The notes under the pieces were generated by a model. That model was not told the origin of the DNA. It made no database searches and saw only the letters and a list, made by a program, of their open reading frames with translations. Below, in pieces: positions 4,839-26,165 of a DNA stretch of 31,605 bases (position 1 is its first letter; every line of letters begins with the position of its first letter). Source of the DNA: a virus. The stretch is taken from positions 1-31,605 of the IMG/VR virus record IMGVR_UViG_3300009124_001500; one strand, written 5' to 3'. Both the position numbers and the translations under genes were made by a program.

Positions 4839-5568
4839 TAATTTGCTCCCATGTCCTAATGAATGACTCGCCGTCACCCTGCTCAACATTTCTGAGTTTT
4901 TCAGCGATCGACATTCCGATATCTCCACGAAAGGCCTTATATGCTATCGCTGACGTAACTGCCATGTGATAGCTGTCATCAATCGGCTCTACATGAAGAA
5001 TACGTTCAAGATTTAAATTCACTGCACAATTGACCTTATCGATCATTAATGGATCTATCTCCATCGAAGATCTAACGACGAATATATAGCCGTTTTTACA
5101 ACGCTTGAACGCCTCGTTGATTATCTGCTCTGGTTCAAAAACAAAGCATTTAACGCAAGAATACTCAGCAAACAAAAGTTCTTTTTTACAGATTTCTTGG
5201 ATTCTAGAAGGCTTTATCTGTGAATGTGCAACAACGATCTTGAATTTTGAGATACCTTTTATGGCGGAAAGAGCCTTAGCGGTATTGACTAGACTGTCTT
5301 CGTCTTCTGCGACGATAATGATGCATCCGCGAATATGAACTTCTTCTTTTAGTTTGCTAAGTCTCAAGTCTAAATCATCAGGGTAAGAAGACTTAGTTCT
5401 TCTGTACTGACAGACTCTATGTATGACCGGACCTTCTCCATCTATTGATGTCGTAACCTTGGCACCGGCCTGTATAAACCTTTCTAGTATGCCAATGCTG
5501 CAGCCATTCGTTTTTGAGTCATAAAAATCACAGTTTCTGCAAACTGTAGCTAGTTTCAATTCAGCCAT
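4819..5568 (-). CDS. Cysteine-motif protein with GT-A-like domain, unknown
   Basis: A 249-residue protein. The first 55 residues carry Cys10, Cys13, Cys23 and Cys53 (CRNCDFYDSKTNGC ... RVCQYRR), a likely zinc or iron-sulphur knuckle. Residues about 78-200 look like a GT-A-type alpha/beta domain: VHIRGCIIIVAEDEDSLVNT, KFKIVVAHSQ, GYIFVVRSSMEID (possible metal-binding acidic end), then a helix with DPLMIDKVN. A nucleotide-sugar transferase or a partner of one is plausible, but no family is certain. The ATG at 5568 lies inside the end of the GT-B gene (13-base overlap) with GAGGAG close by. The next gene overlaps its end by 20 bases. The cysteines link it to the GT-B protein before it, which carries its own cysteine knuckle. 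Confidence 0.55.
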   Translation of the reverse strand: MAELKLATVCRNCDFYDSKTNGCSIGILERFIQAGAKVTTSIDGEGPVIHRVCQYRRTKSSYPDDLDLRLSKLKEEVHIRGCIIIVAEDEDSLVNTAKALSAIKGISKFKIVVAHSQIKPSRIQEICKKELLFAEYSCVKCFVFEPEQIINEAFKRCKNGYIFVVRSSMEIDPLMIDKVNCAVNLNLERILHVEPIDDSYHMAVTSAIAYKAFRGDIGMSIAEKLRNVEQGDGESFIRTWEQINESYSS

Positions 5569-7211
5569 TTCTCCTCGCAGTCTATAAGCTTTGATCTATC
5601 GTTTCTTACTGATTCCCAGATGTTGTAATTATCAAGCCTTCTTCTAAAGAAGGTAAGTAGCTTTTCTCTCGTTAGTGGGGTTTTTGTCGAGTCCGAAATT
5701 GGTGAGTTTTCTGTCGAGAAAAATCCGTCAAAAGACCCTCCAGTAACCCCTCTGTTGAGATCCCTATGAAGGGACGCGACAAACTGAGAATTTTTATGCG
5801 ACTCATTATATAGATAATTGTCAGACACGAACTGCATAAACGCGGCGTTTGATAAGTCATTCGCCGGATTGCTTGGCGTCTGAATGATCCGAGTCGGCTG
5901 CTTCCAATCGGCATACTCAGAACGATCTATTATATCAGACCAAACCCCCGCTGATTTGTCCCAGCTGTAGTTTTCTTCAAATTGACGCCTAGTTGATCTC
6001 GCTAGTTCTATCTGCTGATCTTTTGTCTTTTTTGAGAAGAACGACCTAAATGTATTCACAATCGATTCTTTTTCTGGAGTCGCTCTATAACACCCTGTCT
6101 CTAATTCTTTGTATAGGGATTGTACCTTTAGGGGATATGCACCAGCCCTGTAAACAAGGTCATCCATCGCCGAATATTCAACAGATGCTAATGGAATTCC
6201 ACAAGCCGCTGCTTCAACCTGCGGCAGGCCAAATCCTTCAGAGTTGGCACATTGAATATAGAAGTCGAATAAGTTATAGATCTTTGCTAGCTTCTCGTCG
6301 CTAACTCCAGATCCGACACTGGATGGTCTTGAGTCAAACTTTCTACATTTCCCGCACCGCCTTGCCGCATCTCTAAAGTAGCAAACCTCTAAGTTTTTGC
6401 ACGAACTGCAAACATAAGAAAACAAAACGCGAGACGAGATATTATGTTCGTTTAGTAGACCAGCTATATTCCAGCCGTTATCAGGATAGCTTGTATGGCA
6501 GTATAAATAAGTATTGGTCAATCCTGATGAATGAATGTATTCGGAAAAAGCTTCAAACAGTAAAGGATAGAGTTTCCGTCTTTGGTTACGCATGACGGTG
6601 CCAATTATTTTAACATTATTGTCAACGCCGAATTCTTCACGTATAGACGCCTTGTCCATAGGCCTGAAACAATCAGATGCTGACGGAGAGGCCACTCCAC
6701 ATAGGTTCAGAGAGTTTCCAGCTTGTTTTTTCAGGACGTTGCTCGCCCATTCTGAATAGGTCAGTAGGTAATCAACATCACTAAATACACTCAGCCACTC
6801 ATTGTTTTGGGGGGCGGCGTCGACAGTAGGCATCCATACCCACTGAAAGATTCGCCTAAACGGAGAGTGGTATATGAATGAATCCATCCAGTAATCACGA
6901 ATCGAAAGAACAATATCTGGTTCAAAGTCTAGGCATACCCTCTCAAAACGCCAAGACCCAAACTGGTTAACCTTTGACGAGTTGTATACACTGCAATGCT
7001 CTTTGTTGGACTCCTCTGGCATATTTGGGTAGTTACGCCATTTTATTGAACTTCTTCTGTCGTCATCAACACTGCCATAACCAGAAAGTTCCGCCAAGTC
7101 GTATTTGCCAGAGTCGTGCAACCTATTCATGATTTCTCTTGTGTAGGTCGCATAACCAGAGCTAAGATAACTGGCCTCTGTAACAAAGAGTACTCGTTTT
7201 TTTCTAGGCAT
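5556..7211 (-). CDS. GT-B glycosyltransferase with cysteine-rich insert
   Basis: A 551-residue enzyme. It opens with the GT-B donor/acceptor strand and glycine turn VLFVTEASYLSSGYATYTREI. Midway, VKIIGTVMRNQRRKLYPLLFEAF is the typical start of the nucleotide-sugar half, and SEGFGLPQVEAAACGIP holds the E-x7-E pair (Glu325, Glu333) of GT1/GT4 families. Between these is a five-cysteine insert (Cys268, 271, 277, 286, 289), probably a zinc knuckle. After about residue 410 is an extra tail with FVSDNYLYNESHKNSQF, perhaps for acceptor binding. It should transfer a sugar from a nucleotide donor; the acceptor is not known. ATG 7211 overlaps the sigma gene's stop by 8 bases. It is the first and largest member of the sugar cluster. 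Confidence 0.8.
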   Translation of the reverse strand: MPRKKRVLFVTEASYLSSGYATYTREIMNRLHDSGKYDLAELSGYGSVDDDRRSSIKWRNYPNMPEESNKEHCSVYNSSKVNQFGSWRFERVCLDFEPDIVLSIRDYWMDSFIYHSPFRRIFQWVWMPTVDAAPQNNEWLSVFSDVDYLLTYSEWASNVLKKQAGNSLNLCGVASPSASDCFRPMDKASIREEFGVDNNVKIIGTVMRNQRRKLYPLLFEAFSEYIHSSGLTNTYLYCHTSYPDNGWNIAGLLNEHNISSRVLFSYVCSSCKNLEVCYFRDAARRCGKCRKFDSRPSSVGSGVSDEKLAKIYNLFDFYIQCANSEGFGLPQVEAAACGIPLASVEYSAMDDLVYRAGAYPLKVQSLYKELETGCYRATPEKESIVNTFRSFFSKKTKDQQIELARSTRRQFEENYSWDKSAGVWSDIIDRSEYADWKQPTRIIQTPSNPANDLSNAAFMQFVSDNYLYNESHKNSQFVASLHRDLNRGVTGGSFDGFFSTENSPISDSTKTPLTREKLLTFFRRRLDNYNIWESVRNDRSKLIDCEEKWLN

Positions 7212-7659
7212 TTTGCTTGATTCTTATCTTTGCTCTCTTGATTAATTGCGAAACTTTTGTATTGCTTATCCCAAGGTTTGAAGCTACTTCTCTATGCGTG
7301 AGCCCATTGTATTTCATAGTCACCACACGCCTTAGATCCGGTTCGGCGTCTGAGCCAACAAAATCTTCAAGATCGAGATGCTCTTCCGAATAACCACAAT
7401 CGAAGGCGGATTCAATTGATAAAGTTTGCTTGGAAGATTTGCCTGTTCTTGTAATTTCTTTAAGCATCGCATTTCTAGATACATGGTAAACAAATGTTGT
7501 TTCTGCCCCTCTCGATTTGTCGTACTTTTCCACGTTTTCAATTAGAGCCAAAAAGCCAGACTGGGCCAAGTCATCAGCCTGGTTCGAGCCATCACTTAGT
7601 GAGTGTGCAATTTTCCATACGAGGTCACTATTTCTTTCAATCAATTCATGTGATTTCAT
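7204..7659 (-). CDS. Sigma-70-family RNA polymerase sigma factor
   Basis: A 151-residue sigma factor. Residues about 15-60 form region 2 (LVWKIAHSLSDGSNQADDLAQSGFLALIENVEKYD, then AETTFVYHVSRNAML), which binds core polymerase and melts the -10 element. Residues about 112-148 form region 4 with a helix-turn-helix (MKYNGLTHREVASNLGISNTKVSQLIKRAK). Region 1 and most of region 3 are absent, as in small phage and ECF sigma factors. It probably redirects host RNA polymerase to middle or late viral promoters. I chose the ATG at 7659, which has GAGGAG seven bases upstream. It follows ssb and precedes the glycosyltransferase, so it would be made with the replication genes, ahead of late transcription. 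Confidence 0.88.
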   Translation of the reverse strand: MKSHELIERNSDLVWKIAHSLSDGSNQADDLAQSGFLALIENVEKYDKSRGAETTFVYHVSRNAMLKEITRTGKSSKQTLSIESAFDCGYSEEHLDLEDFVGSDAEPDLRRVVTMKYNGLTHREVASNLGISNTKVSQLIKRAKIRIKQNA

Positions 7660-7670
7660 TAAAAATCTCC

Positions 7671-7991
7671 TCAAATAAGTTCAAAATCATTTACCCTGAA
7701 GGTAACTATTCCTTCTTCAACTTTTGCCGTGGCGTCTTTTATCAATATCCTGTCTCCCGGAATCAAATTTTCCTCGATGAAATCTGCTGCTGAACCCCAA
7801 ATCGTGCAATCTATAATAGACTCGTCGGTTCTTCTTGCTTGATTTGCTCGTTTATTGAAAACCCTTACCGAAAACAATAGCCCGTCAGACTGTTTTCCCT
7901 GTGCAAGCTCTTCATCTGATAGCCGTGTTCCATCTCCATGGATGGCTGTTTGACCCCCAATATGTTCGCCAAAAAATGTACATCTGTTCAT
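7671..7991 (-). CDS. ssb: Single-stranded DNA-binding protein
   Basis: A 106-residue OB-fold protein. MNRCTFFGEHIGG is the SSB first strand, LLFSVRVFNKR the second, IIDCTIWGSAADFIEENLIPGDRILI the W-G-x-x-A-x-x-I and G-D-x-x-x-x region, and VTFRVNDFEL the last strand. It coats single strands at the viral fork. Bacterial SSB usually has about 170 residues with an acidic tail for partner binding; this one ends directly after the OB fold, with only Asn-Asp-Phe-Glu-Leu-Ile at the terminus. ATG 7991 has GGAGG five bases upstream. It lies 9 bases after the C-terminal polymerase gene and 11 before the sigma gene. Confidence 0.85.
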   Translation of the reverse strand: MNRCTFFGEHIGGQTAIHGDGTRLSDEELAQGKQSDGLLFSVRVFNKRANQARRTDESIIDCTIWGSAADFIEENLIPGDRILIKDATAKVEEGIVTFRVNDFELI

Positions 7992-8000
7992 GTCAGCCTC

Positions 8001-10367
8001 CTAAATTTCAAAAATGCGATCAACTATGAATGAATTTCTTTCGGCGTCCTTTACCTCGCCAGAGAGTAGCACGGTAGACCTCTCGTATATTATAGCCTTG
8101 TTCTGCTCGTACAAGTCTGGAAATATTACAATATTCTCCAGTTCTCCAGAATTGTCTTCCGCAGAAACAAAAGCCATCAAATCACCCTTGCTTGTTCTGT
8201 GCTCTCGGAGTCTCGTAATCATTGCGGCGATGATGCAATTTCCACGCCTACCTTCGTTCACCTGTAGGCATGTAGCGTTTGCGTGAGATGCATTTGAGCA
8301 CGCCGTTAACTCCGAGTAGTTTATTGCATAACCTAAAAGACGTTCTTCTTCTCGGGCGTAAGTAACTGGACTGTCGCTCAGGTCTCTTCCGGGATTCTGG
8401 AGTCTCAACAGAATCTCTTTAACCTTATTCATTCTGCTAATACGTGAGATAAATCCACCCTCTTTCTTTAGACCTCTTCCTAAGAAACGCTCAATAAGTT
8501 CAGTTACAGACACCTCAAGGACATTGAAGCATTCGCGAATGGAATTAATTTCTCCTTTAGTTAAGCCTTCGCTTATGCACTCAAAATCATGAAGCATTCG
8601 TGTCCTGCTCTGACCAAAACCAGAAAATGCACCAGCGGAGATAAGACTTTTGACAGCCCGTTTATTTACATCTGTAAGGATGTGGATTAAAAGGAGGGTC
8701 CAATTGAATCTTTCTACTGGAATTCCAACGCCTTTAATTTTTTCTCTCAATTTGGCAACGTCTGAAGACCCAACGTTTTTTATATTGCATAAGCCAAAAG
8801 ATATTATATGCTCGTCATTCTCGATCGACATCGTGAAATCTTCTTCGAGAAGTCTAATACTTGGACCTCTAAACAAAATCCCCTCTGACATAGCTGCGAG
8901 GATAAGCTGTCTTTTCTCAAGGTCTGGGTTGATTTTTTCCTTTGCGTCACGCATCCACTCCCTAGTAAATTTAAGAAACCTATAGTACCTTAAATATGCT
9001 GACCAGTAAGAAATTTTTGCATAAGCCACTGCGTGTGATTTATTGAATGAGTATCTAGCTGATTTCTCAATCATGTCAAACACTTTGGTAGAAACATCGT
9101 CCGGTATACCATTTGAGGAGGCACCCTCTAGAAATTTAACCCTGATTTGACTCATTAGGTCAGCTTTCTTTTTACCGATCGCCTTTCTGAGATCATCCGC
9201 CTCCTTTAGATTAAAACCAGCCATTTTCACGGCGATTTCCATCGCTTGCTCCTGATACACAATAACCCCATATGTATTATCTACAACGGAGTCAATTGAC
9301 GGGTGTAGTGATGGAACTTCATCCTTACCGTTCTTTCTGTCGGCGTAATGCTGTGTCATGGATTTTCCGTCAGCAAATGCTTTTAGGCAATTATGAACAA
9401 TAAAATTCCCGGCAATGAAGTTATGGTTTGGGCCCGACATGGAAATATCATAAGTATCTTTAATTCCAACAGATTCATTTCCAGTGTATGTTGCCCATTC
9501 AATGTCATCTGATATAGGTAGATATAAACCATCTCTATTGCTTACTATTTCTTCATTAGAAATTAATCCTTTAGATTGTTTCCTGTGACAATTTGGACAT
9601 AAAAATGCTAAATTTTCATAATGATTATTTGTATGTCTATTCCCGTTTATATGATGAACATCTAAAGTAGTTTCGTCCCATCCGCACATAACACACTCTT
9701 CATGATAATGCTTGTAGCATATCTCATGAAAATAACGTGTTCCTTCAATATTTTTCTGGCGAGGTGCTTTTGGATGATGTCTATTGCAAATTGTATTGGA
9801 TCTAATAGATCTATTATTCTTTTTCTTATAAATTGCAATTCTGTCCCCCGGATCTAAATGTTGCAACTCAACCCATTCCATATCTGATCTTAACAACTTA
9901 TGATCAGCAGTGCATTCAAGGTTGTACCAATCAGGATGGTTATTTTTGCAAGATCCTGACATAGAATATTTCCTTACATTAACACGGAAACACTCTTTCT
10001 TGCCACTGTAAAATACGTCAAGTAAGTTATTTTCTATCGCATTTAATGAACCGCTCGCTTCATCAATGGAATAAATTGTTTCAGGACTTGTCTTGCCGTC
10101 ACACAAGTCTTTGATGCTTTTTCTAACATATCTATGTTTTTTATCTTTGTGTAAATATTTCTGCACTGTTATAAGAGTATCCCCAGAAATACATCCGGGC
10201 CTAATAATACTAATTACATCCGCTAGTTCAAGTATTGACGTCGGCTTGATTGCTTTACACCAGTGCTTACCAAGACTGCCCTCAATTTGAAAACAGCCCT
10301 TTACGCGACCCTCGCCAAACATTCTCCATACGTCTTGATCAGATTCATCTACTTCAGTAATATTCAT
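8001..10367 (-). CDS. dnaE: DNA polymerase III alpha, C-terminal part, with in-frame intein
   Basis: 788 residues, of which 268 are an intein (59-326), leaving about 520 after splicing. Before the intein, FGEGRVKGCFQIEGSLGKHWCKAI matches the 'vFQLEs-gM' region of DnaE, and ADVISIIRPG the polymerase finger motif. After it come DRKNGKDEV, YQEQAMEIAVKMAGF, the Arg-Lys-Ala-Ile-Gly-Lys-Lys helix, FNKSHAVAYAKISYWSAYLRYY, a helix-hairpin-helix (LISAGAFSGFG) and an OB domain (ITRLREHRTSKGDLMAFVSAED). No catalytic aspartate is here: all three lie in the partner gene at 11046-12863. The protein starts exactly where the partner ends in a normal DnaE, so the two should join non-covalently. ATG overlaps the exonuclease stop (ATGA). 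The spliced halves total about 1125 residues, near normal DnaE length (about 1160 in E. coli). Confidence 0.9.
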   Translation of the reverse strand: MNITEVDESDQDVWRMFGEGRVKGCFQIEGSLGKHWCKAIKPTSILELADVISIIRPGCISGDTLITVQKYLHKDKKHRYVRKSIKDLCDGKTSPETIYSIDEASGSLNAIENNLLDVFYSGKKECFRVNVRKYSMSGSCKNNHPDWYNLECTADHKLLRSDMEWVELQHLDPGDRIAIYKKKNNRSIRSNTICNRHHPKAPRQKNIEGTRYFHEICYKHYHEECVMCGWDETTLDVHHINGNRHTNNHYENLAFLCPNCHRKQSKGLISNEEIVSNRDGLYLPISDDIEWATYTGNESVGIKDTYDISMSGPNHNFIAGNFIVHNCLKAFADGKSMTQHYADRKNGKDEVPSLHPSIDSVVDNTYGVIVYQEQAMEIAVKMAGFNLKEADDLRKAIGKKKADLMSQIRVKFLEGASSNGIPDDVSTKVFDMIEKSARYSFNKSHAVAYAKISYWSAYLRYYRFLKFTREWMRDAKEKINPDLEKRQLILAAMSEGILFRGPSIRLLEEDFTMSIENDEHIISFGLCNIKNVGSSDVAKLREKIKGVGIPVERFNWTLLLIHILTDVNKRAVKSLISAGAFSGFGQSRTRMLHDFECISEGLTKGEINSIRECFNVLEVSVTELIERFLGRGLKKEGGFISRISRMNKVKEILLRLQNPGRDLSDSPVTYAREEERLLGYAINYSELTACSNASHANATCLQVNEGRRGNCIIAAMITRLREHRTSKGDLMAFVSAEDNSGELENIVIFPDLYEQNKAIIYERSTVLLSGEVKDAERNSFIVDRIFEI
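9390..10193 (-). mobile_element. Intein with HNH homing endonuclease in the DnaE RPG motif
   Basis: A 268-residue intein between RPG and the next Cys of the polymerase. Splicing block A is CISGDTLITV with Cys1. Block B is LECTADHKLL (Thr95-x-x-His98). Blocks F and G are DTYDISMSGPNHNFIAGNFIVHN, split here as DTYDISMSG then PNHNFIAGNFIVHN, ending in His267-Asn268, followed by Cys+1 of the host protein. All residues needed for standard splicing are present. The middle (about 165-210) is an HNH nuclease: Cys167-x2-Cys170, DVHHINGN (His180, His181), NLAF, Cys199-x2-Cys202. The host sequence reads RPG-CLKAFADGKS when the element is removed. Base composition looks more A+T-rich than the flanks, especially about 9540-9850 (by eye, not counted), which fits recent transfer. 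Confidence 0.92.
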
Positions 10368-11035
10368 CTAAGTCCCTTGAGTGAATTCTTAAAGGTAAGC
10401 CCGGACGCGAATCTTCTCAGATGGTTTTGCGTTCTACAAAAAACCTCCGCGGTCATTATTACGTCAGACATTGCATCGTGTGCAACACCCTTCGCATAAC
10501 CCATATGTCCGCGAATCAGGTTATCGGCAGATAGCGAGTTTACGTCCTTGTTGTTTTCGAACAGGCAAAACATAATTGGCAAAAGGTCGACGCTATAAAA
10601 CCTATTGAAGATATTTGGCCTTCCGTCCTTTTCTGGACCAAACTCTCTACACAACCTAGCCGCAATCACGGAGTCGAACTTATCTATATTGTATCCAACG
10701 GAAATTGGAGTATTCCAGTCGTTTTTCCTATAATTGTGTTCATTCACATAGGCCGCAAAGTTTTGCCAAACAGACTTTGCTGACGGTGCATCCCTGAGCA
10801 TCTCCTCCGTCTTTCCATGTACTCTTATCGACTCTTGTGTGAGTGGATCGACACCCATTTCTGAACATTTCGCATGGTCAAACTCTATCCTGATTAAAGA
10901 CTGGAACTCAGACCCCGGTTTAATTTCAAGTTTTCGCCCATTTATCGCAACTGCTGCAATTTGCACCGCCTGGGTTGTATCTGGGTTCGCCGATGTAGTT
11001 TCAAAGTCGTAAACAATATAGTCTCTGTAATTCAC
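10364..11035 (-). CDS. dnaQ: DnaQ-like 3'-5' exonuclease (DEDDh), between the two polymerase halves
   Basis: A 223-residue exonuclease. Exo I is IVYDFETTS (Asp-x-Glu near residues 10-12), Exo II is SVGYNIDKFDSVIA, and Exo III is VAHDAMSDVIMTAEVF, with the His-x4-Asp spacing of the DEDDh class (DnaQ, proofreading epsilon). It probably removes mispaired bases for the split polymerase, whose own PHP domain looks degraded. The start is GTG (11035-11033) with GAGGAG six bases upstream; no ATG lies before the Exo I motif, so GTG is required. It follows the N-terminal polymerase gene by 10 bases and overlaps the C-terminal gene by ATGA, so all three should be made together. Confidence 0.85.
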   Translation of the reverse strand: MNYRDYIVYDFETTSANPDTTQAVQIAAVAINGRKLEIKPGSEFQSLIRIEFDHAKCSEMGVDPLTQESIRVHGKTEEMLRDAPSAKSVWQNFAAYVNEHNYRKNDWNTPISVGYNIDKFDSVIAARLCREFGPEKDGRPNIFNRFYSVDLLPIMFCLFENNKDVNSLSADNLIRGHMGYAKGVAHDAMSDVIMTAEVFCRTQNHLRRFASGLTFKNSLKGLR

Positions 11036-11045
11036 GAGTCACTCC

Positions 11046-12863
11046 TCATTCTTCTGCTGTTCTTGCTATTTTTCCAAGTATTGATAACCCAAGGATATCA
11101 AATTTAACACAACCAATAGATTCTAAGTCATTCATTTCCATACCGGCAATCTTCTCAGAGCCTCTAGAAGCCTTTACCATTGGACATATGTCATCTAGAT
11201 TATCTGATGCGATCACAACGCCAGCAGCATGTTTTCCCTGTGTCTTAAAGATGCCTTCCATACGCATAGCTTGATTGAACTCTCTTGCATATTGCCCCTC
11301 TAGGACACCCTCGTTATTGATCCAGCAATAGTCGGCCAATGACTCCCTGTCATTTTCTAGCGTCCATCTAATAACTGAAGGGTCTTCCATTTCCTCTAAA
11401 AGGTCTGAAATGGCAGACTCCGACTGAATAGCCTCTGTTATTCTATTCATTTCGTCGAAAGTGCATGACTCATTTGTCCTCAAAACCTCTTTTAATATTG
11501 ATCTTCCAGCAAGCCTTCCAAATGTTAGCATTTGGCAGACCCTTGAGTCTCCGTATTTTCCTCTAAGGTACTTAATTACTTCGTCTCTATATTCTGGAGG
11601 GAAGTCGACATCAATATCAGGGAGTGATACATGATCCTCTGTATTTCTACCCTCATTATAAAACCGCTCAAAAATCAAACCATATTCGATTGGGTCAATT
11701 AACGTAATGCCTGTTAGATAACAGACTAACGATCCACCTCCAGAACCCCTGCCGGGACCAACCAAGCACCCAAGACGTTTAAAGTGGTTCACGTAGTCTT
11801 GTACAATCAGAAAGTACCCAGCAAGCTCCGCCTTCTCGATTACAGAAAGTTCGCTAAGTACCCTGTCCCTATAGATACTAACCTTTTCCTCGGGTATTTT
11901 GTTAAGTAATAACTTTTTCCATCCATCTCTACAGAGTTGCTTCAGGTATTCGTTCTCCGATTCGCCGTTCGGCGTTTCAAAGTGTGGAAGGCGTGGGCGT
12001 GAAAGTATTTCAATATCTTCGCACAGTTCAACAATCTCTTCAAGGTTTGCTCTTGCTGTCTCGTTGTACCACTCGGCAATCTGAGCCATTGATTTGATAT
12101 TGTAAGAACTTCTTCTGATAAATTTCAGCAGGTTTATATCTTGAGTCTCGTCTATTTTTTCAGCCAGTTTTCGTAGAGTTGTCTTCAGCCTTACGCACAC
12201 AAGAACTCTGTGATCAACAGCGTCTAGTCGATCGGGGTAGTAACTTGACGTATCTGGTATGACGCAATCTAAGCCGTGTAACATATTACCAAGAACCGAG
12301 ATCACTGGAAAGCTATCGTCACCAGGGCTTAAATCTATTTCGACGTAATAGTGTGAGAATATAGATCTTGCATTAGAAATATAGGCGTCAAGATCCCATT
12401 CGCTGCTTATACAGCCGCTGACAGAGTCTGCGTCTAGTGCGTTGAAGACGCACTCTAGGCTGCTAAACATGTTGTGAAAAAGCCGACTTCCCACATACCC
12501 ATCGATGCACACGAAATTTGATGGTGTTATTGATGACAGTAGATTATCAAATGGTATTTTTGGGTATCTGTCATAATTTTCTTCTGAGTTAGCAATTGAA
12601 GTGACGTTTAGTAACTCACGCCACGCCTCTTTATTCCTGCATATCAGCGTAATTGAACCACCATCAGACAATACAATTTCTGACCCTATAATTGGCTTGA
12701 TTCCGTTTTTTTTACAGCATTGAATAAACTTTACGCAGCCGCTGATTGTCGCGAAGTCTGTCAGACCTGCATAACAATAACCAAGGTCTTTGGCTTTCCC
12801 AACTATCTGTTCGACCCTTGACGTTGACAACGTCAAAGAATAGTGGCTTTTGTTTCTAAGCAT
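11046..12863 (-). CDS. dnaE: DNA polymerase III alpha, N-terminal part (PHP + catalytic palm)
   Basis: 605 residues. Residues 1-200 are the PHP domain (LGYCYAGLTDFATISGCVKF, GIKPIIGSE), but the first His-x-His metal site of active PHP domains is reduced to one His (KSHYSL), so it is probably inactive. GPGRGSGGGSLVCYL (369-383) is the nucleotide-binding turn. PDIDVDF (415-421) gives Asp416 and Asp418, HAAGVVI follows at 545-551, and VKFDILGL gives Asp589, so the three metal-binding aspartates of the polymerase site are all here. The protein ends 16 residues later, at LSILGKIARTAEE, where an ordinary DnaE simply continues. The missing part (thumb-proximal fingers, helix-hairpin-helix, OB) is encoded at 8001-10367. 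It follows a Cas4-like nuclease gene by 42 bases. Confidence 0.92.
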   Translation of the reverse strand: MLRNKSHYSLTLSTSRVEQIVGKAKDLGYCYAGLTDFATISGCVKFIQCCKKNGIKPIIGSEIVLSDGGSITLICRNKEAWRELLNVTSIANSEENYDRYPKIPFDNLLSSITPSNFVCIDGYVGSRLFHNMFSSLECVFNALDADSVSGCISSEWDLDAYISNARSIFSHYYVEIDLSPGDDSFPVISVLGNMLHGLDCVIPDTSSYYPDRLDAVDHRVLVCVRLKTTLRKLAEKIDETQDINLLKFIRRSSYNIKSMAQIAEWYNETARANLEEIVELCEDIEILSRPRLPHFETPNGESENEYLKQLCRDGWKKLLLNKIPEEKVSIYRDRVLSELSVIEKAELAGYFLIVQDYVNHFKRLGCLVGPGRGSGGGSLVCYLTGITLIDPIEYGLIFERFYNEGRNTEDHVSLPDIDVDFPPEYRDEVIKYLRGKYGDSRVCQMLTFGRLAGRSILKEVLRTNESCTFDEMNRITEAIQSESAISDLLEEMEDPSVIRWTLENDRESLADYCWINNEGVLEGQYAREFNQAMRMEGIFKTQGKHAAGVVIASDNLDDICPMVKASRGSEKIAGMEMNDLESIGCVKFDILGLSILGKIARTAEE

Positions 12864-12905
12864 AGTTTTCTCGAATTCTTGTTGGTTTGTACTTTACCGT
12901 ATGAT

Positions 12906-13916
12906 TCATTTGTCGCTTCCCTCAAGCCTTCCACCGCCAGCACCATACTTGCCAATTTTATCCAGACTGGCGTGATTGGCGACTACATAATCCATCCCTC
13001 TTGATCGTATCATCCCGTGGAAGTGTTGGCAAGTACTAATTCCAGTATTTTCGTATTCTTGGGAAAATTTGCACAATAGTCGGCACTTGAAGTCGGTATG
13101 GCTAGGAGATATTTGCTTCGGAAGATTTGTTCGCTTTATTTCTTCGAACTTCTGTCGTAGCATCTGTTCAGCTTTTTCGTAGTCTTCATCACTAAAAACA
13201 ATATCAAAAACGCCGCCGTGATTAACATAATAAATGGAAACATAAAACGTCCTGTCTGGGAAAATATTTCTTAATGCGTAGTAGTATAGCAGCAACTGCT
13301 TGTCTTCACACAGGTCTTCATATGTTTTTTCTTTTCCTGTTGCCCAGTTCTTTCTTTGCCCGGTCTTGTAATCAAGAACCTGAAAGTACATACCTTCCTC
13401 GCGTATGATTACGTCAACCGTTCCCTTGAGAGACAAGTATCCATCAAAAACAGTGTCGCCAACCTCGTAATGGTACTTGGCCCAATCTTTTCTTATTTCA
13501 AAGTCAAAGAATTGCTCTGTCGCCTCTATGTTTTGATTTCTTGGGTCCATCACGCCATCATTGAACGCCAACGCCTTCTCTACCCATCGAACACATTGAC
13601 GAAAGTCGGCCTCGTCAAGGCCAACGTCTTCCTCGTGGCTTTTGTAGTAATCAAAACAAACTCTTGTTACAAAATCGATATCGTCGCATTCAGAAAAAGT
13701 CATATCCTGAATATCGTCGTTTTTTAGTTTTCTCTTCTTTTTTCTCTGAGCTATGGATTTATCGGCAAGGACTTGCATAACGCGATGAAAAATTGTTCCC
13801 ATCACCGCCTTTTTGTTGGTTTTGTCTTTCATCCCAAGAACGTACTGGAAAAAGTATTTCATCTGACACATTTCGTAGGTGCCTAGAGATGAAGACCTAT
13901 GGTAACAAATTATCAT
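12906..13916 (-). CDS. Cas4/RecB-like PD-(D/E)XK nuclease with probable Fe-S cysteines
   Basis: 336 residues. The N-terminus has S-x-L-x-x-Y-x-x-C (Cys17) and MGTIFHRVM (His44). The nuclease core is GTVDVI (Asp168), VLDYKTG (Asp182, Lys184) and a Gln helix (EDKQLLLYYYAL, Gln207). Near the end are Cys278, Cys282 and Cys296. One early cysteine plus three late ones is the iron-sulphur pattern of Cas4 and AddB-type nucleases. The likely role is a single-strand exonuclease in replication-linked recombination, or degradation of host DNA. No CRISPR array or cas1/cas2 is nearby, so an adaptation role is unlikely. ATG 13916 has AGGA six bases upstream. It lies between dNMP kinase and polymerase genes. 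Confidence 0.78.
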   Translation of the reverse strand: MIICYHRSSSLGTYEMCQMKYFFQYVLGMKDKTNKKAVMGTIFHRVMQVLADKSIAQRKKKRKLKNDDIQDMTFSECDDIDFVTRVCFDYYKSHEEDVGLDEADFRQCVRWVEKALAFNDGVMDPRNQNIEATEQFFDFEIRKDWAKYHYEVGDTVFDGYLSLKGTVDVIIREEGMYFQVLDYKTGQRKNWATGKEKTYEDLCEDKQLLLYYYALRNIFPDRTFYVSIYYVNHGGVFDIVFSDEDYEKAEQMLRQKFEEIKRTNLPKQISPSHTDFKCRLLCKFSQEYENTGISTCQHFHGMIRSRGMDYVVANHASLDKIGKYGAGGGRLEGSDK

Positions 13917-13931
13917 CTATATTCCTAACTG

Positions 13932-14834
13932 TTATCTAAGTTCAAATCGCTTTGGAGAGGTTGTAAATTTTCCATCCGCATTTCTTTTCTGGCTCCCGAA
14001 GTTTTTCATCCTTTGTATACATCCAAGTCTTACAAGTTCTTCCAGTAATGACTCGCATGACTCCTCAATAGTCATTGATTGGTTTTCAATAACACCATCA
14101 AATTCATGGTATCTGTCTAACTGTATCTCGCTCTCGTGAGAGCTTTCGTGAGAGCTTTCGTGTATAGATCTTTTCAGCCTGATGACTTTTCCGCCAGCAT
14201 TTTGGACTGCTTTCGCCTCGTTGACAAATCTGCAGTCAGATATTACAGCGACTGGTGGTGCATCCTCAGCAATCCTAGATATACAGTCATTAACCCACAC
14301 TGGCTCATAAATCTTACGCATAACATCTGTACCAAAATACTGCATAAATTCACGAGCGGTCATTGGGCCACGACTTCTTGGTGCAATCGTGTAGAACGCA
14401 TTGCCTAAAGACTCAGTATAATCTGTGTCAATCTTTACATGACCCGGCATGTTTTCCCATAACAAATGCTCCTGAATCTGATTCTTTTGCTCGTCAGTTC
14501 CGTACAAGCATTCGTAAGGAATTCTAAAAAGCGTCATGCAGATCTCTTTCAGTGAATCTGCAAAGTTATACTCTCTGACAAACGGCCATATATTGTCCTC
14601 GGCATACCTGTAAAACTGGTGATTCCTTTGCGAGAGATCCATAAATCCCTCTGTCGAGGCCTGTTTTCCATTCTCGTCGACGTAATCAAATTCAACGAAA
14701 AGTTCCCCAGTTTCTGGGTGAATCGAAAATCTATTGATCGATTCGCTTCGAAGCATTTCATAACCATGAATGAAATTAGAAAGAGTCCCTTTTCCGGACT
14801 GCTTTTTCCCGCATAGTGCTATTATTACAGTCAT
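13932..14834 (-). CDS. Deoxynucleoside monophosphate kinase
   Basis: 300 residues. A P-loop sits at residues 9-17 (GKKQSGKGT). FADSLKEICMTLFRIPYECLYGTDEQKN, the MTAREFMQYFGTDVMR helix with NDCISRI, and VISDCRFVNEAKAVQNAGGKVIRLKR match T4 gp1-type dNMP kinases, which phosphorylate dNMPs to dNDPs and handle modified as well as normal bases. This fits with ribonucleotide reductase and the MazG-like protein upstream as a dNTP supply path. The conserved H-x-S-E segment is expanded into three HES copies by a 12-base repeat (14134-14162). ATG 14834 shares one base with the primase stop (TGATG), with AAGG nine bases upstream; the TTG one codon earlier is not needed. Confidence 0.85.
   Translation of the reverse strand: MTVIIALCGKKQSGKGTLSNFIHGYEMLRSESINRFSIHPETGELFVEFDYVDENGKQASTEGFMDLSQRNHQFYRYAEDNIWPFVREYNFADSLKEICMTLFRIPYECLYGTDEQKNQIQEHLLWENMPGHVKIDTDYTESLGNAFYTIAPRSRGPMTAREFMQYFGTDVMRKIYEPVWVNDCISRIAEDAPPVAVISDCRFVNEAKAVQNAGGKVIRLKRSIHESSHESSHESEIQLDRYHEFDGVIENQSMTIEESCESLLEELVRLGCIQRMKNFGSQKRNADGKFTTSPKRFELR
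14134..14162 (-). repeat. 12-base tandem repeat inside the dNMP kinase gene
   Basis: The unit TCGTGAGAGCTT (+ strand) occurs twice exactly, followed by TCGTG, giving 2.4 copies. In the reading frame each unit encodes His-Glu-Ser-Ser, so the protein reads HESSHESSHESE where relatives have a single His-x-Ser-Glu. Units of 12 bases keep frame, so copy number can change without breaking the gene. Confidence 0.9.
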
Positions 14835-15880
14835 CAATATTTACCTTCTATCTGGGGCTTTATGTCCGAATTTATCTCTTTTACCGACATATCACCAACA
14901 TCATTGAAACTACCCAACTCAACCCTGCTCACATTAAACAACACCCCGAGCCTATTCTCAATGTCTTGATAGCAGGTATTTCCAGCATCATCATTGTCTG
15001 TTATTACAACGATGTTAGAAACTCCAGTTGACTGTATTAAGAACTCTTGAGAGTCGCTTAGTTTTGACCCAAAAATTCCTACCGCGTTTCTTATTCCAGC
15101 TTCCCACAATCGTATTACATCACCAGCCCCTTCGACAACTATTATAGTCGCAGTCTCTTTGATTCGTTTTATTGCTTTGCCGTGATTGTACAAAAAGTTT
15201 GATTTACTGAACCCCTTCTGATTTATCCACTTGGAGGAGTTCTGTCTTACCGATCTCCCGATACAGCCGACCATATATGTGTCATCAGAATCATAAACTG
15301 GAAACACGATGCGTCCGCACATCTTGCTTTCACGGGCAATACAAAGTCCGACATCAAATTCATTCAGTGCTTCTTCCGTGAAGCCCCTTGACAGATAGTA
15401 CTGTGATGGAAAAGTCAGATGCCTACGCACACGATCTCTGGTTATTTTTCTCCCCTGCGTTATTGATTTCCTTTTGGTTTTTCTTTTTGCGGTAGCGGAC
15501 TGGTTTTCAGTATTCAATTCTACGCCAGAGCAAAACTCTTCGCAGAAATCAATAACCTTGCGAAAGTTTAACTGCTTGTCTCTCTTTTTTTCTAGAAGCA
15601 TCCATGTTAGTGATATAACATCCTTTCCAGGTTTTTCGTCATGGCATGATTTTGTATTACAAAACCAACGACCATACCTACCCTGCTCCGATTCATCAAT
15701 GTTAATGTTGAATGCTGAGGGATTATCCCCCTCATGAACTGGACAACACCCAACCAGTAAATCATCGCACTCAAACAACGAATCAGATAAATCAAAGTAT
15801 TCTAGTAAATCAGAAAAGCGTCTCATCATTTTGATTCGCAGGTCGCGAATCTTCTGATTCCGGGAAGCCTCTTGTTGCAT
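14834..15880 (-). CDS. DnaG-like primase (zinc finger + TOPRIM)
   Basis: 348 residues. A CHC2-like zinc finger is formed by Cys46, His49, Cys74 and Cys79 or His80 (GCCPVHEGDNPSAFNI ... RWFCNTKSCHD). The N-terminal part of the catalytic core contains YYLSRGFTEEALNEFDVG and RIVFPVYD. The TOPRIM part has VVEGAGDVIRLWEAG (Glu250) and VVITDNDDAG (Asp295, Asp297), the metal-binding acidic residues. It should lay RNA primers at the fork. At 348 residues it is shorter than bacterial DnaG (about 580), lacking the helicase-binding C-terminal domain. ATG 15880 has GGGAG about ten bases upstream but overlaps the helicase end by 71 bases; ATG 15829 is an alternative without a clear ribosome site. Confidence 0.87.
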   Translation of the reverse strand: MQQEASRNQKIRDLRIKMMRRFSDLLEYFDLSDSLFECDDLLVGCCPVHEGDNPSAFNINIDESEQGRYGRWFCNTKSCHDEKPGKDVISLTWMLLEKKRDKQLNFRKVIDFCEEFCSGVELNTENQSATAKRKTKRKSITQGRKITRDRVRRHLTFPSQYYLSRGFTEEALNEFDVGLCIARESKMCGRIVFPVYDSDDTYMVGCIGRSVRQNSSKWINQKGFSKSNFLYNHGKAIKRIKETATIIVVEGAGDVIRLWEAGIRNAVGIFGSKLSDSQEFLIQSTGVSNIVVITDNDDAGNTCYQDIENRLGVLFNVSRVELGSFNDVGDMSVKEINSDIKPQIEGKY

Positions 15881-17282
15881 TTCTATTTAACTCCCTAATT
15901 GTACCAAGTTCTTCAATTCTCGCCAAGGAACCATCCATATTGAGACATATGTACCCATCATCACCTATACCGGGTCCATGCCTAGAAACAACAGGAATCA
16001 GCTTTTTGTTTCCATTGCTTATCCCGTCTGACATTATCTCTTCTTCGGTTTTGTTCTTAAATATTGAAAATGACGTACATAACCAAACAAGCCTATCAGA
16101 CCCAGAGACGACGTCTGTTGTTTCTTTTGTTATTCCATCCCTATTTAATTGCACGAATGACAAACATGGACAGTCATTCTCAACACAGAAGTTATGTAGA
16201 GCGGTTATCTGAAACCCAAGCACTTGAAACTCGGCGAGATTGCTGCTAATGCTAGAAGACGTCATTAACTTGAGGTAATCATAAATAATTACACAATCAT
16301 TCAGCCTCCCGTTTTCATCGTACCCAACTTTTTTCAGAAGCCATCTCTTCATTATGGAAAGTGTCTCATCGAATGGTCTGCCAGCAATACTCACATAGTC
16401 ATACGGTATTGAAGACATTTTTTCTACAGCCGAATTGACCGCATCAACACTTGACTGATTCGAAAAGAATGAACCCGAAGCTACGCTATTTATTTCAACG
16501 CCGCTTAGGTTGGCTGTAATTCTATTCCAATGATCCTCCGTGCTCATTTCTGTATCGAGCATTAAAACTGGTATTCCATATTGCGTAGTTATGTTCAGTG
16601 CGACATTATCTGCTAATACAGACTTGCCAGTCTTTGGTCTAGCAGCTATTAGATCTACACACTTTCGCCTCAAACCTCCGCCGATAGATTGATCAAAAGC
16701 GGCATACCCTGTCGGTATTCCAATCGATTTTCCTTTGTTTTGCTTTACGTGTTCTATGTATTCACGTATTCCATCCCCTATCGACCGTGGTGAAAAATCA
16801 TCCTCACGCATAAACGACATGCAAATATCTTGAATTGGAGATTCTACCATAGACAGTATCGATGCTATGGTCTCTTCTCCGGTAACCGAGTTCTCAAGAT
16901 CGGTATAAATCCCACGCAGGCTTTGCTGGAGGGTCCTCGCGAACTGCAATCTTTTCAAAATCTTTGCGTGATGTTCCACCGACTCAAGTCTGATTGGTGT
17001 GTTTATCAGTCCATTGAGGTGACGCAAAACTTCATCCCGTTCCACGATCTGGTCAAGACCTAGCGTCCTAGCCGAAGAAAGGATGTCAGTAAGGGACGTA
17101 GATTCTCTCTGATTTAGAGAATGCCTTACACACTTAAACAGAACCTTGTTTTGTTCAAGGGTGAAGCTCTCTTCATCAACATAAAGATCGACCTCAAGCA
17201 AGCACTCCCTACCGTGCTGTATTATTCCCGAGAGGACAGATCTTTCTGATGGTATGTTTGATTTTGTGAGTTCTTTACCCAT
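15810..17282 (-). CDS. dnaB: DnaB-like replicative helicase
   Basis: 490 residues. The N-terminal helical domain (IPSERSVLSGIIQHGRECLLEV...) is followed by a linker helix and a RecA-fold motor: GIPTGYAAFDQSIGGGLRRKCVDLIAARPKTGKS with Walker A at 214-221, DTEMSTEDHWNRI (Glu245 region), Walker B CVIIYDYLKL (330-339), and QLNRDG near the sensor. It would form a ring and unwind DNA ahead of the split polymerase. It is encoded just before the primase, with a 71-base overlap, and one base after the Lys-rich zinc-ribbon gene. The C-terminus is a polar tail after LARIEELGTI. Confidence 0.9.
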   Translation of the reverse strand: MGKELTKSNIPSERSVLSGIIQHGRECLLEVDLYVDEESFTLEQNKVLFKCVRHSLNQRESTSLTDILSSARTLGLDQIVERDEVLRHLNGLINTPIRLESVEHHAKILKRLQFARTLQQSLRGIYTDLENSVTGEETIASILSMVESPIQDICMSFMREDDFSPRSIGDGIREYIEHVKQNKGKSIGIPTGYAAFDQSIGGGLRRKCVDLIAARPKTGKSVLADNVALNITTQYGIPVLMLDTEMSTEDHWNRITANLSGVEINSVASGSFFSNQSSVDAVNSAVEKMSSIPYDYVSIAGRPFDETLSIMKRWLLKKVGYDENGRLNDCVIIYDYLKLMTSSSISSNLAEFQVLGFQITALHNFCVENDCPCLSFVQLNRDGITKETTDVVSGSDRLVWLCTSFSIFKNKTEEEIMSDGISNGNKKLIPVVSRHGPGIGDDGYICLNMDGSLARIEELGTIRELNRNATRGFPESEDSRPANQNDETLF

Positions 17283-18365: not shown

Positions 18366-18757
18366 CTTTGTCTTTCATTGTATGGGAGTACTATCAATCT
18401 TATCTCATTAAGATCGCACCAGTCTGCTTTGTTGCGATCACGCATTTTAGCGTTTACAAATTCCATCTGACTTCTGTAAAAGAAGTGGGACATTTTGTAG
18501 TGCTGCTCTCCATGAACCTCAATAACTGTCATCAGGTCTGGAATAAAAAAATCGGCATAAAGAAGAGACTTCATGCCAAATTTTTTAGATCCTGGGAGGG
18601 TTACTTCCTCGTACACGGAGTTATTAGGCCATGTTTGGCTTATTATAAGCCTAGCCTCTCTGTGTAATGAGGATGTTTTGTTTCTGAACTTCCTGTTTCT
18701 ATTTTTCGCGTAGTTGAATTTGTGTTGCCTTCCATCAAATCCAGTAACACTAATCAT
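18341..18757 (-). CDS. Small PD-(D/E)XK-like nuclease next to recA
   Basis: 138 residues. The core is E34 in LHREARLIIS, then LLYADFFIP (Asp69), then TVIEVHGEQHY (Glu80, His82, His86), with RLIVLPYNE as a later strand. This follows the layout of the nuclease at 1631-2431, where the same stretch reads EVDIFIP then AIEIDGPQHF. Here the Glu-x-Lys position is Glu-x-His, as in Vsr-like/EDxHD enzymes. The start has a basic FDGRQHKFNYAKNRNRKFRNK segment likely to contact DNA. It overlaps recA by 8 bases. It may be a recombination or structure-specific nuclease, or a domesticated homing enzyme. Confidence 0.65.
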   Translation of the reverse strand: MISVTGFDGRQHKFNYAKNRNRKFRNKTSSLHREARLIISQTWPNNSVYEEVTLPGSKKFGMKSLLYADFFIPDLMTVIEVHGEQHYKMSHFFYRSQMEFVNAKMRDRNKADWCDLNEIRLIVLPYNERQRWTEMLKS

Positions 18758-19793
18758 TCTGTAAGAAATCCTGCACTCTTTTTCTTACTTCCTTATATAT
18801 GTCTTCACGCTCAGACAAAAAGTCATATATTTTTGACTGCCCTTGAAATTTTGGCGACTGCTCAAACTCTTCCGTCTCTGAAAGAAATGGTATCGAGTAC
18901 CATGCACCAGCTTTGTCAATTACCCCGAAAGACTCGGCAAGTTCTATAACTTCTTTTTCTTTGTCAATACCCTTGCCGTATCTAATGTAACTTATACAGT
19001 CTGTGCCAGAGGCACCTAGTGATGAACACCCAATGTCCCAATGCACCAACTGCCCTATTTTCCTTCCGCCTTCTTCCCACGGTTCAATTCTAGCAATATC
19101 AATACGAGTATCCGCTTGGTATTGTACCATCTTTCCACAGTCTGGAACTTTTGTTTTTCCGTACCCAGAGGTGTTTGTGATGTAGTGTGTAATTATGAGG
19201 ACTATAATTCTGTTGTTTACTACTGATTGTGCATTTTTCTTTATCCAATGAGACAAAAGTTTGGGAAGACTTGCACGTATTGTTGCGGAGGCACTTTCGT
19301 CAAGCTCCGCCCTTGGCACCAAGCTTGAACACGAGTCTATAACTAGGACAGCACCAGCATTTTCTTTTCTTTTGATCAACCCCTCGGCGATATTTAGGAA
19401 GTCCTCCGCAGACAGCTGCTCGCCATCATCTGGGCTATGTACGATGTTAATTTTTTCTATATCGAGCCCATCAATACCGACAAGATTATAGGCTTTTAGC
19501 CTACTCTCTCCGTCGAGGTATATCACATTTCGACCATCCTTCTGTGCATTGCTGCATATCTGGAGGCATGTAGTTGTTTTTCCAGTTTTAGGGTCTCCTG
19601 ATACTATTGTCCAACTACCCTCAAGAATACCACCATTTAGTGCAATATCAAGTCGTGGGCCAACACTTAAAACACCTAAGTTCTTCTTCGCTTCTATCAG
19701 TTCAGATCCGCGAGAGACAACACGCCCAAAAGCCTTTCTTATTTTTTCATCAGTGCTTAGGTCAAGTCTTTTATCTTTTTTGTCTTTTGGCAT
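18750..19793 (-). CDS. recA: RecA-like recombinase
   Basis: 347 residues. LSVGPRLDIALNGGILEGSWTIVSGDPKTGKTTTCLQIC contains Walker A (66-73). VIYLDGESRL gives the catalytic Glu region. GAVLVIDSCSSLVPRAELD is Walker B. IIVLIITHYITNTSGYGKTKVPDCGKMVQYQAD matches the RecA 'Q-x-R-x' and ssDNA-loop L2 neighbourhood. It would form filaments and drive strand exchange in viral recombination and restart. Length matches bacterial RecA (about 350), but the sequence is divergent and shares features with T4 UvsX-type proteins. ATG 19793 shares one base with the previous stop (TAATG). Confidence 0.87.
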   Translation of the reverse strand: MPKDKKDKRLDLSTDEKIRKAFGRVVSRGSELIEAKKNLGVLSVGPRLDIALNGGILEGSWTIVSGDPKTGKTTTCLQICSNAQKDGRNVIYLDGESRLKAYNLVGIDGLDIEKINIVHSPDDGEQLSAEDFLNIAEGLIKRKENAGAVLVIDSCSSLVPRAELDESASATIRASLPKLLSHWIKKNAQSVVNNRIIVLIITHYITNTSGYGKTKVPDCGKMVQYQADTRIDIARIEPWEEGGRKIGQLVHWDIGCSSLGASGTDCISYIRYGKGIDKEKEVIELAESFGVIDKAGAWYSIPFLSETEEFEQSPKFQGQSKIYDFLSEREDIYKEVRKRVQDFLQND

Positions 19794-20718: not shown

Positions 20719-21059
20719 TATGCACCCCTTATAAATTTATCCTTTTGGTTTTCATTCATTGAGTTGATTTGGCGATGCATTTCTCTTCTCGCCTGCTTCA
20801 TCGGGTCTTTTTTCTGATCAGCTTCTCTGAGTCTTCGCTCCTCAACCTCGCTAGAACCTAGCCGTTTCGCGTTTCTCTCAGACAGCTGCCCTATTGTTGT
20901 TGGATCGCCCCGAACAAATACCATTGGTGCGGATATCAACCTTTCCATGGATGCAGAACCGCACCTTTCGCAATCTATTATAGGAGGTTCTGTCAGCCCC
21001 TGACTGACGTCTTTTAGTTGGAACTGACAGTTTTCACAAAAATAATCATAACAAGGCAT
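20718..21059 (-). CDS. FmdB-type zinc-ribbon protein
   Basis: 113 residues. The first 45 are an FmdB/CxxC_CxxC zinc ribbon: YFCENC (Cys8, Cys11) and IDCERCGS (Cys30, Cys33), followed by MERLISAP, a typical sequence after this ribbon. The rest is a charged helix (RRLREADQKKDPMKQARREMHRQINSMNE). FmdB ribbons are found as small regulators in bacteria and often near terminase or PhoH genes in phages; a nucleic-acid or protein contact role is likely. It is joined by TAATG junctions to phoH upstream and the 64-residue gene downstream. Confidence 0.75.
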   Translation of the reverse strand: MPCYDYFCENCQFQLKDVSQGLTEPPIIDCERCGSASMERLISAPMVFVRGDPTTIGQLSERNAKRLGSSEVEERRLREADQKKDPMKQARREMHRQINSMNENQKDKFIRGA

Positions 21060-23893: not shown

Positions 23894-23923
23894 ATTTCAC
23901 CCTTTCAAATATAATGACTTAAC

Positions 23924-26146: not shown

Positions 26147-26165
26147 CGTTAACACCTTTCAAGAT

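What the first reader, a model, noticed from the sequence alone, without database searches (positions are those of the whole stretch)
8001..12863. Pol III alpha split in two genes with a DnaQ exonuclease gene between the halves
The 605-residue piece ends 16 residues after VKFDILGL, and the other piece begins at the 'FGEGRVKGCFQIEG' region, exactly where one continuous DnaE would carry on. All three catalytic aspartates (416, 418, 589) are in the first piece; fingers, helix-hairpin-helix and OB domain are in the second. The exonuclease sits between, with a 10-base gap on one side and an ATGA overlap on the other. This suggests a three-part polymerase made from one coupled message. The split site differs from the well-known cyanobacterial split-intein site near the FNKSH motif, and no intein halves lie at the break.
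Basis: partly seen in the sequence, partly recalled or inferred. Interest (0 to 1): 0.82.

Follow-up and report, generated by a model that had tools for sequence, protein, structure and literature searches.

The report
Viral three-gene split DNA polymerase III

Summary
On the minus strand lie a Pol III alpha N-half (11046-12863), a DEDDh DnaQ-like exonuclease (10364-11035) and a C-half (8001-10367), joined by a 10-base gap and an ATGA overlap. AlphaFold models of the halves match E. coli alpha residues 8-571 and 584-1073, so only about 12 loop residues at the palm/fingers boundary are missing. It is not an artefact: the N-exonuclease-C order occurs in every complete relative found (111 distinct N-halves, 71 clusters at 80% identity). 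All form one clade (97 tips, edge support 1.0) separate from one-gene viral and bacterial DnaE. No class A or B polymerase, beta clamp or delta'-type clamp loader was found in 18 large relatives. In the window's branch the PHP site is destroyed while the exonuclease residues stay invariant, so the exonuclease is the likely only proofreader. Split Pol III alpha has been described in jumbo phages (Iyer 2021) and split polymerases in T4-like phages, so I call this a new variant of a known kind. Assembly of the three products is inferred, not shown.

The parts
11046..12863 (-). Pol III alpha N-half (605 aa): PHP domain (catalytically degenerate here), palm with all three catalytic Asp (D416, D418, D589), thumb
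   Evidence: Pfam PHP and DNA_pol3_alpha; AlphaFold model pLDDT 92.9 matches E. coli alpha 8-571, Z 35; Asp invariant in 68 relatives
10364..11035 (-). DnaQ-like DEDDh 3'-5' exonuclease (223 aa, GTG start), lying between the two polymerase halves
   Evidence: Pfam RNase_T E 4e-14, PHROG 192 DNA polymerase exonuclease subunit, PolC exonuclease 2p1j; D10 E12 D121 H186 D191 invariant in 40 relatives
8001..10367 (-). Pol III alpha C-half ORF (788 aa incl. intein): fingers, HhH and OB domains
   Evidence: Pfam DNA_pol3_finger and HHH_6; model of the exteins matches E. coli alpha 584-1073
10197..10367 (-). C-half N-extein (residues 1-57, ends SIIRPG)
   Evidence: alignment with intein-free L002
9393..10196 (-). 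in-frame intein with HNH endonuclease domain (268 aa; Cys1 CISGDTL, TADH, ...FIVHN, +1 Cys)
   Evidence: Pfam Intein_splicing 30.9 bits (below its 35.8 cut-off) and HNH 26.2 bits (above its cut-off); weak match to DnaB intein 1mi8; absent in 98%-identical L002, present in L008 at 64% identity
9573..9698 (-). HNH endonuclease motif within the intein
   Evidence: Pfam HNH at about residues 224-265 of the C-half
8004..9392 (-). C-half C-extein (fingers from CLKAFADG on, HhH, OB)
11036..11045 (-). 10-base N-half/exonuclease junction with ribosome-binding-like GGAG
   Evidence: sequence
10364..10367 (-). ATGA stop/start overlap of exonuclease and C-half
   Evidence: sequence
7671..7991 (-). SSB/OB-fold protein directly downstream of the C-half (same replication module)
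   Evidence: Pfam SSB E 9e-5, below its cut-off
12906..13916 (-). PD-(D/E)XK nuclease directly upstream of the N-half
   Evidence: Pfam PDDEXK_1 E 2e-24
14834..17282 (-). primase (14834-15880) and DnaB-like helicase (15810-17282) of the same replication module
   Evidence: Pfam and PHROGs

Best explanation
This is the viral replicative DNA polymerase: a DnaE-type Pol III alpha that was split once, at the palm/fingers boundary, in the ancestor of a large virus clade, and has been inherited as two genes with a DnaQ-like exonuclease gene between them. The three proteins are made from one operon. The N-half (PHP, palm, thumb) and the C-half (fingers, HhH, OB) would reassociate without a peptide bond through the palm-fingers surface that holds a one-piece alpha together, and the exonuclease would act as the epsilon-like proofreader. 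In this virus the C-half must first splice out its own HNH intein. Shown: the split, its position, its conservation and single origin in the sample, intact catalytic residues, purifying selection, co-inheritance, and lack of a detected alternative polymerase. Inferred: non-covalent assembly, proofreading by the exonuclease, intein splicing, and the origin by gene fission.
For: Fold: the two halves map to adjacent, non-overlapping parts of the same solved chain (E. coli alpha 8-571 and 584-1073; Z 35 and about 21). Conservation: every complete viral relative has the order N-exonuclease-C (164 loci, some overlapping; 27 more loci, some on contigs already counted); 111 distinct N sequences, 71 clusters at 80%. 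Single origin: all 29 (N+C tree) and all 97 (N tree) split tips are separated from every other tip by an edge of support 1.0. One-piece viral DnaE score at most 502 bits against the split-clade profile; the lowest split members of that set score 730. Selection: dN/dS about 0.05 (N), 0.24 (exonuclease), 0.25 (C) against L002, computed from the dN and dS values. Distance matrices of the three proteins correlate (Mantel r 0.93, 0.84, 0.90). Catalytic Asp and DEDDh residues invariant. No family A or B polymerase in 18 relatives of 81-244 kb. PHP nonet lost in the window's branch but intact in most other branches, while the exonuclease is kept everywhere. No intron RNA; no intein sequence at the N/C break in any relative.
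Against: No interface between the halves was computed or measured; complexes could not be modelled here. In 11 of 71 clusters other sequence of gene size is inserted between N and the exonuclease, and in a few between the exonuclease and C (up to 4.5 kb in L231), so tight coupling is not essential. All relatives are uncultured contigs, most of them fragments; the host and its clamp are unknown.
Confidence: 0.82

Rival explanations
1. The halves are joined after translation or at RNA level (trans-splicing intein, intron or recoding), so the working enzyme is one chain.
For: Split inteins do occur elsewhere in this clade: at FNK|SH inside the C-half of L036 and of L200/L201, and the window's C-half has a contiguous intein.
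Against: N-halves end roughly 10-45 residues after the KFDILG motif with no intein-like tail, and C-halves begin within about 60 residues of the FQIE motif. The window junctions are 10 bases and an ATGA overlap, with a whole exonuclease gene between, which leaves no room for an intron; Rfam finds none.
Confidence: 0.04
2. The exonuclease is just a neighbour in a replication operon and does not act with this polymerase.
For: In many branches other small genes also sit at the same junction; the exonuclease is not tightly coupled in most of them.
Against: It is kept between the halves in every complete locus over a wide range of divergence, its active site is invariant, its distances track those of N and C, and it is retained where the PHP site is lost.
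Confidence: 0.15
3. On origin: the split arose by insertion of a homing endonuclease (or a fractured-gene split intein) at the palm/fingers boundary, followed by loss of the mobile element and capture of the exonuclease gene.
For: Endonuclease genes occur at these junctions in relatives (Endonuclease_7 between exonuclease and C in L016, Pfam E 9e-14; an HNH-like ORF between N and exonuclease in L234, identified by eye). Isolate phage Wollypog has alpha split elsewhere with an HNH gene between the parts. Split intein plus endonuclease-like ORF in L036 and L200. Precedents in T4-like phages (PMC2988022).
Against: No endonuclease is shared across the clade at the junction; other genes (glycosylase, ThyX, methyltransferase, by sequence inspection) are also inserted there, so the site may simply be tolerant. 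This concerns origin, not present function, and is compatible with the best explanation.
Confidence: 0.35
4. Assembly, sequencing or decay artefact.
For: None beyond the oddity of the arrangement.
Against: Over 100 distinct sequences with the same break; purifying selection on all three genes.
Confidence: 0.01

Closest known systems
Split minimal DNA polymerase III alpha of group 2.2 jumbo phages (Iyer et al. 2021, PMC7824862)
   Same: Pol III alpha encoded as two separate phage proteins thought to reconstitute the enzyme
   Different: Those are minimal (no PHP or other Pol III domains), encoded by distantly located genes, divided within the catalytic part, and accompany a family B polymerase. 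Here full-size alpha is divided at palm/fingers, the genes are in one operon with an exonuclease between, and no family A or B polymerase was found.
Split T4-type genes: gene 43A/43B of Aeromonas phages 25 and 44RR, nrdA of Aeh1, T4 topoisomerase 60/39 (PMC2988022)
   Same: Essential phage enzymes split into separately translated parts; for Aeh1 nrdA the paper reports a fully functional enzyme
   Different: Family B polymerase or unrelated enzymes; the inserted gene is a homing endonuclease or untranslated sequence, not a DEDDh exonuclease; restricted to a few phages, whereas here the split defines a large clade.
Cyanobacterial split DnaE with split intein
   Same: DnaE encoded in two genes
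   Different: Break at the FNKSH site and joined by trans-splicing; here the break is roughly 170 alpha residues upstream of FNKSH with no intein halves. Notably L036 and L200 carry a split intein at the cyanobacterial-type site in addition.
DnaE plus standalone DnaQ (E. coli alpha-epsilon; Escherichia phage Mansfield gp065/gp064)
   Same: DnaE-type alpha served by a separate DnaQ-type proofreader, genes adjacent in Mansfield
   Different: Alpha is one chain and the exonuclease gene precedes it.
Arthrobacter phage Wollypog gp56/gp59
   Same: DnaE split into two annotated genes with other genes between
   Different: Break before the palm (after profile position about 289); HNH endonuclease and a hypothetical protein between; single isolate in another part of the tree.

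Membership tests
DnaE-type DNA polymerase III alpha (family C) | palm with three catalytic Asp (PDIDxD and KxD) | tested here: met
   D416, D418, D589 invariant in 68 relatives
DnaE-type DNA polymerase III alpha (family C) | PHP-palm-thumb-fingers-HhH-OB domain order | tested here: met
   met across two proteins
DnaE-type DNA polymerase III alpha (family C) | single polypeptide | tested here: not met
   two ORFs with another gene between, conserved in the clade
DnaE-type DNA polymerase III alpha (family C) | polymerase activity, clamp binding | not testable with these tools
   no viral beta clamp (PF02768) or delta' loader (PF13177) in 18 relatives
DnaQ-like DEDDh proofreading exonuclease | D-E ... 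D ... H-D active-site residues | tested here: met
   D10 E12 D121 H186 D191 invariant in 40 relatives
DnaQ-like DEDDh proofreading exonuclease | binding to alpha PHP domain and proofreading | not tested
   no complex modelled
Intein with HNH endonuclease (in C-half) | Cys1, TxxH, C-terminal HN, +1 Cys, in frame, with empty sites in relatives | tested here: met
   CISGDTL, TADH, FIVHN|C; empty site in L002; second example L008. Pfam splicing-domain score is below its cut-off
Intein with HNH endonuclease (in C-half) | actual protein splicing | not testable with these tools
   needs expression
Split-intein DnaE (cyanobacterial type) | intein halves at the N/C break | tested here: not met
   no intein-like sequence at the break in the window or relatives
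Jumbo-phage split minimal Pol III alpha (Iyer 2021) | minimal catalytic module, distantly located genes, with a family B polymerase | tested here: not met
   PHP, thumb, HhH and OB present; adjacent genes; no family B polymerase in 18 relatives
Homing-endonuclease split gene (T4 type) | homing endonuclease inserted at the break | tested here: not met
   window has a DEDDh exonuclease there; an endonuclease is found at these junctions only in occasional relatives

The most novel reading that the evidence does not exclude
A distinct class of viral replicase whose natural state is three subunits (alpha-N, exonuclease, alpha-C). The exonuclease's position between the halves is kept because it helps assembly or regulation, and lineage-specific elements at the break (a conserved Cys-x-Cys extension on the C-half and small proteins encoded beside the exonuclease) form the new joint. 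It would work without a viral sliding clamp or clamp loader.
Probability: 0.3. Interest if true: 0.82.

Novelty: new variant of a known kind. Interest (0 to 1): 0.64.

Why it matters
It shows that the catalytic subunit of a bacterial-type replicase can be stably divided at the palm/fingers boundary and stay so across a large virus clade, apparently as the only replicative polymerase. That gives a natural split site for testing how much of Pol III alpha's covalent continuity is needed, a natural series in which PHP proofreading is lost while DnaQ-type proofreading is kept, and a marker gene arrangement for a large uncultured virus group that annotation pipelines would report as two partial polymerases.

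Tried and rejected
Assembly artefact or decay: rejected by conservation and low dN/dS. Intron: Rfam scan of 7600-13200 gave one sub-threshold sRNA hit only. Split intein at the break: none. Fused viral sister close to the split clade: two extra viral scans gave 115 one-gene viral DnaE, none close; the nearest sister is unresolved (support about 0.5, different in the two trees). iqtree2 did not finish, so trees are FastTree only. Clamp-binding motif: a loose QxxLF-type pattern occurs somewhere in 30 of 71 C-halves, too loose to mean anything. KLEB27-3 looks like an intron or split at FQIE with an HNH gene between; Rfam gave no intron there, left open. The intein is poorly modelled by AlphaFold (pLDDT below 50 for residues 58-326, few homologues), so its fold was not tested. 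The exonuclease has no tblastn match in 50,697 phage records. MT836081, one of the best-scoring fecal 'Bacteriophage sp.' hits, looks like a bacterial chromosome piece (RapZ- and WhiA-like ORFs next to dnaE, by eye) and is not counted as phage evidence. Literature searches found no description of this arrangement, within an open-access library only.

Full report
Observation. N-half and exonuclease are separated by 10 bases with a GGAG-type ribosome site before a GTG start; exonuclease and C-half overlap as ATGA. The window is a virus record of 31605 bases. One count is off: 12, not 16, residues follow VKFDILGL.

The C-half contains a complete-looking intein: residues 58-325, from CISGDTL to FIVHN, followed by Cys, inserted at SIIRPG|CLKA. 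Pfam finds an HNH domain above its cut-off and the intein splicing domain somewhat below its cut-off; the closest solved match is a weak one to the DnaB intein. A relative with a 98%-identical N-half (L002) has no intein and a Thr at the +1 position; L008 has a 64%-identical intein at the same place. So the finger domain is interrupted in this virus, and the C-half must splice to work, which is inferred, not shown.

Position of the split. Profile searches and AlphaFold models (N-half pLDDT 92.9; C-half exteins mostly 80-97, intein under 50) place the halves on E. coli alpha 8-571 and 584-1073. By my knowledge of the E. coli structure, that is the palm-to-fingers junction. All three catalytic Asp are in the N-half. 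The C-half alignment to E. coli stops at 1073, so the C-terminal part of E. coli alpha (residues 1074-1160) has no matched counterpart.

Is it general? Seeded with the N-half and the exonuclease, then with alignments, scans of viral contigs gave 164 loci in which N, exonuclease and C are separate ORFs in that order and none of that group with N and C in one ORF; some loci lie on the same contig, so the safer counts are 111 distinct N sequences and 71 clusters at 80%. Two metagenome-assembled contigs filed under Flavobacteriales and Lokiarchaeota also carry it (L115, L116), which says little about hosts. Two further scans aimed at one-gene phage DnaE gave 115 fused loci and 27 more split loci, with a clean gap in profile score (502 versus 730 bits). 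In trees of N+C (29 split, 24 others) and N alone (97 split, 143 others) an edge of support 1.0 separates all split members. The sister group is unresolved. The simplest reading is one ancient fission, with no reversal in the sample.

Is it functional? dN/dS against L002 is about 0.05, 0.24 and 0.25 for N, exonuclease and C. Distances of the three proteins across 62 representatives correlate strongly, so they have been inherited together. Catalytic residues of polymerase and exonuclease are invariant. In 18 large relatives (81-244 kb, possibly incomplete) there is no Pfam family A or B polymerase, no beta clamp and no delta'-type clamp loader. The PHP metal-site motif is HHDHEHHDH in most split branches but degenerate in the window's branch (RKLFE-YSY in the window), where the exonuclease would be the only proofreader. 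The criterion for an active PHP and DnaQ follows PMC12926913.

How tight is the operon? In the window's branch N and exonuclease usually overlap by 11-14 bases or nearly touch. In most other branches an ORF of about 60-95 codons lies between them, of three different kinds by branch. In 11 of 71 clusters longer inserts occur between N and exonuclease, and in a few between exonuclease and C. Order is conserved; strict coupling is not. Many C-halves outside the window's branch begin with a 35-45-residue extension holding a C-x-C motif (47 of 71), a candidate for a joint or metal site at the break.

Relation to known things. A split Pol III alpha was reported in group 2.2 jumbo phages (PMC7824862) but is minimal, encoded far apart and accompanies a family B polymerase. 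Split polymerase, reductase and topoisomerase genes in T4-like phages (PMC2988022) show that split phage enzymes can work. The present case is a new variant: full-size alpha, split at another site, in one operon, with a proofreader gene in the gap, inherited by a whole clade. Split genes with endonucleases and split inteins are also present nearby: L036 and L200/L201 have a split intein at FNK|SH with an endonuclease-like ORF between, resembling the fractured genes named by Dassa et al. 2009 (title seen in a reference list; paper not held). A homing-endonuclease origin for the main split is therefore plausible but unproven.

Verdict. Observation confirmed; interpretation partly supported; artefact excluded. 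The three-subunit working model is likely but rests on homology and co-inheritance, not on a demonstrated complex.

Noticed in passing
   Followed up: yes
L036:9488-12343; L200:8774-11769 (and L276): C-half itself broken at FNK|SH by a split intein (N part about 95 aa, C part about 40 aa) with an endonuclease-like ORF between: a fractured-gene arrangement within an already split polymerase
   Followed up: partly
L364, L366-L370, L373, L375, L384, L349: A second, separate way of splitting viral Pol III alpha, at profile position about 412/415 just before the catalytic PDID motif; L349 appears to have three pieces
   Followed up: partly
L037-L062, L063-L108, L099/L197/L203-L205, between N-half and exonuclease: Three different branch-specific small conserved ORFs (about 75, 58 and 90 aa) between N-half and exonuclease; the one tested (L066) has no Pfam match
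   Followed up: partly
start of the C-half in 47 of 71 clusters (e.g. L066, L108, L203): Conserved N-terminal extension with a C-x-C motif and often a further Cys before TW, absent from the window's branch
   Followed up: partly
L276 and L277 (206-kb contig IMGVR_UViG_3300024358_000009): Two complete N-exonuclease-C sets in one contig, only one with the split intein; could be a real second polymerase or a joined assembly
   Followed up: no
L016:6668-7087 and L234:8005-8652: Endonuclease VII-family gene between exonuclease and C-half, and an HNH-like ORF (by eye, no Pfam hit) between N-half and exonuclease
   Followed up: partly
L109 (Arthrobacter phage Wollypog) and L270 (Bacillus phage vB_BauM_KLEB27-3): Isolate phages with DnaE in two annotated genes and an HNH endonuclease gene between, at other sites
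   Followed up: partly
L113 (MT836081.1): Record labelled Bacteriophage sp. from faeces looks like a bacterial chromosome piece (RapZ- and WhiA-like ORFs next to dnaE)
   Followed up: partly
window 22817-26155, 21059-21760, 18750-19793, 5556-7211: Ribonucleotide reductase large and small subunits, PhoH-like, RecA/UvsX-like and glycosyltransferase genes in the same virus
   Followed up: no
L008:4041-6008; L026:6678-8254; L234:10653-12539: L008 N-half has an internal duplication of about 40 residues; L026 C-half is broken into two overlapping ORFs; L234 C-half has an in-frame insertion of about 65-70 aa near the window's intein site
   Followed up: no
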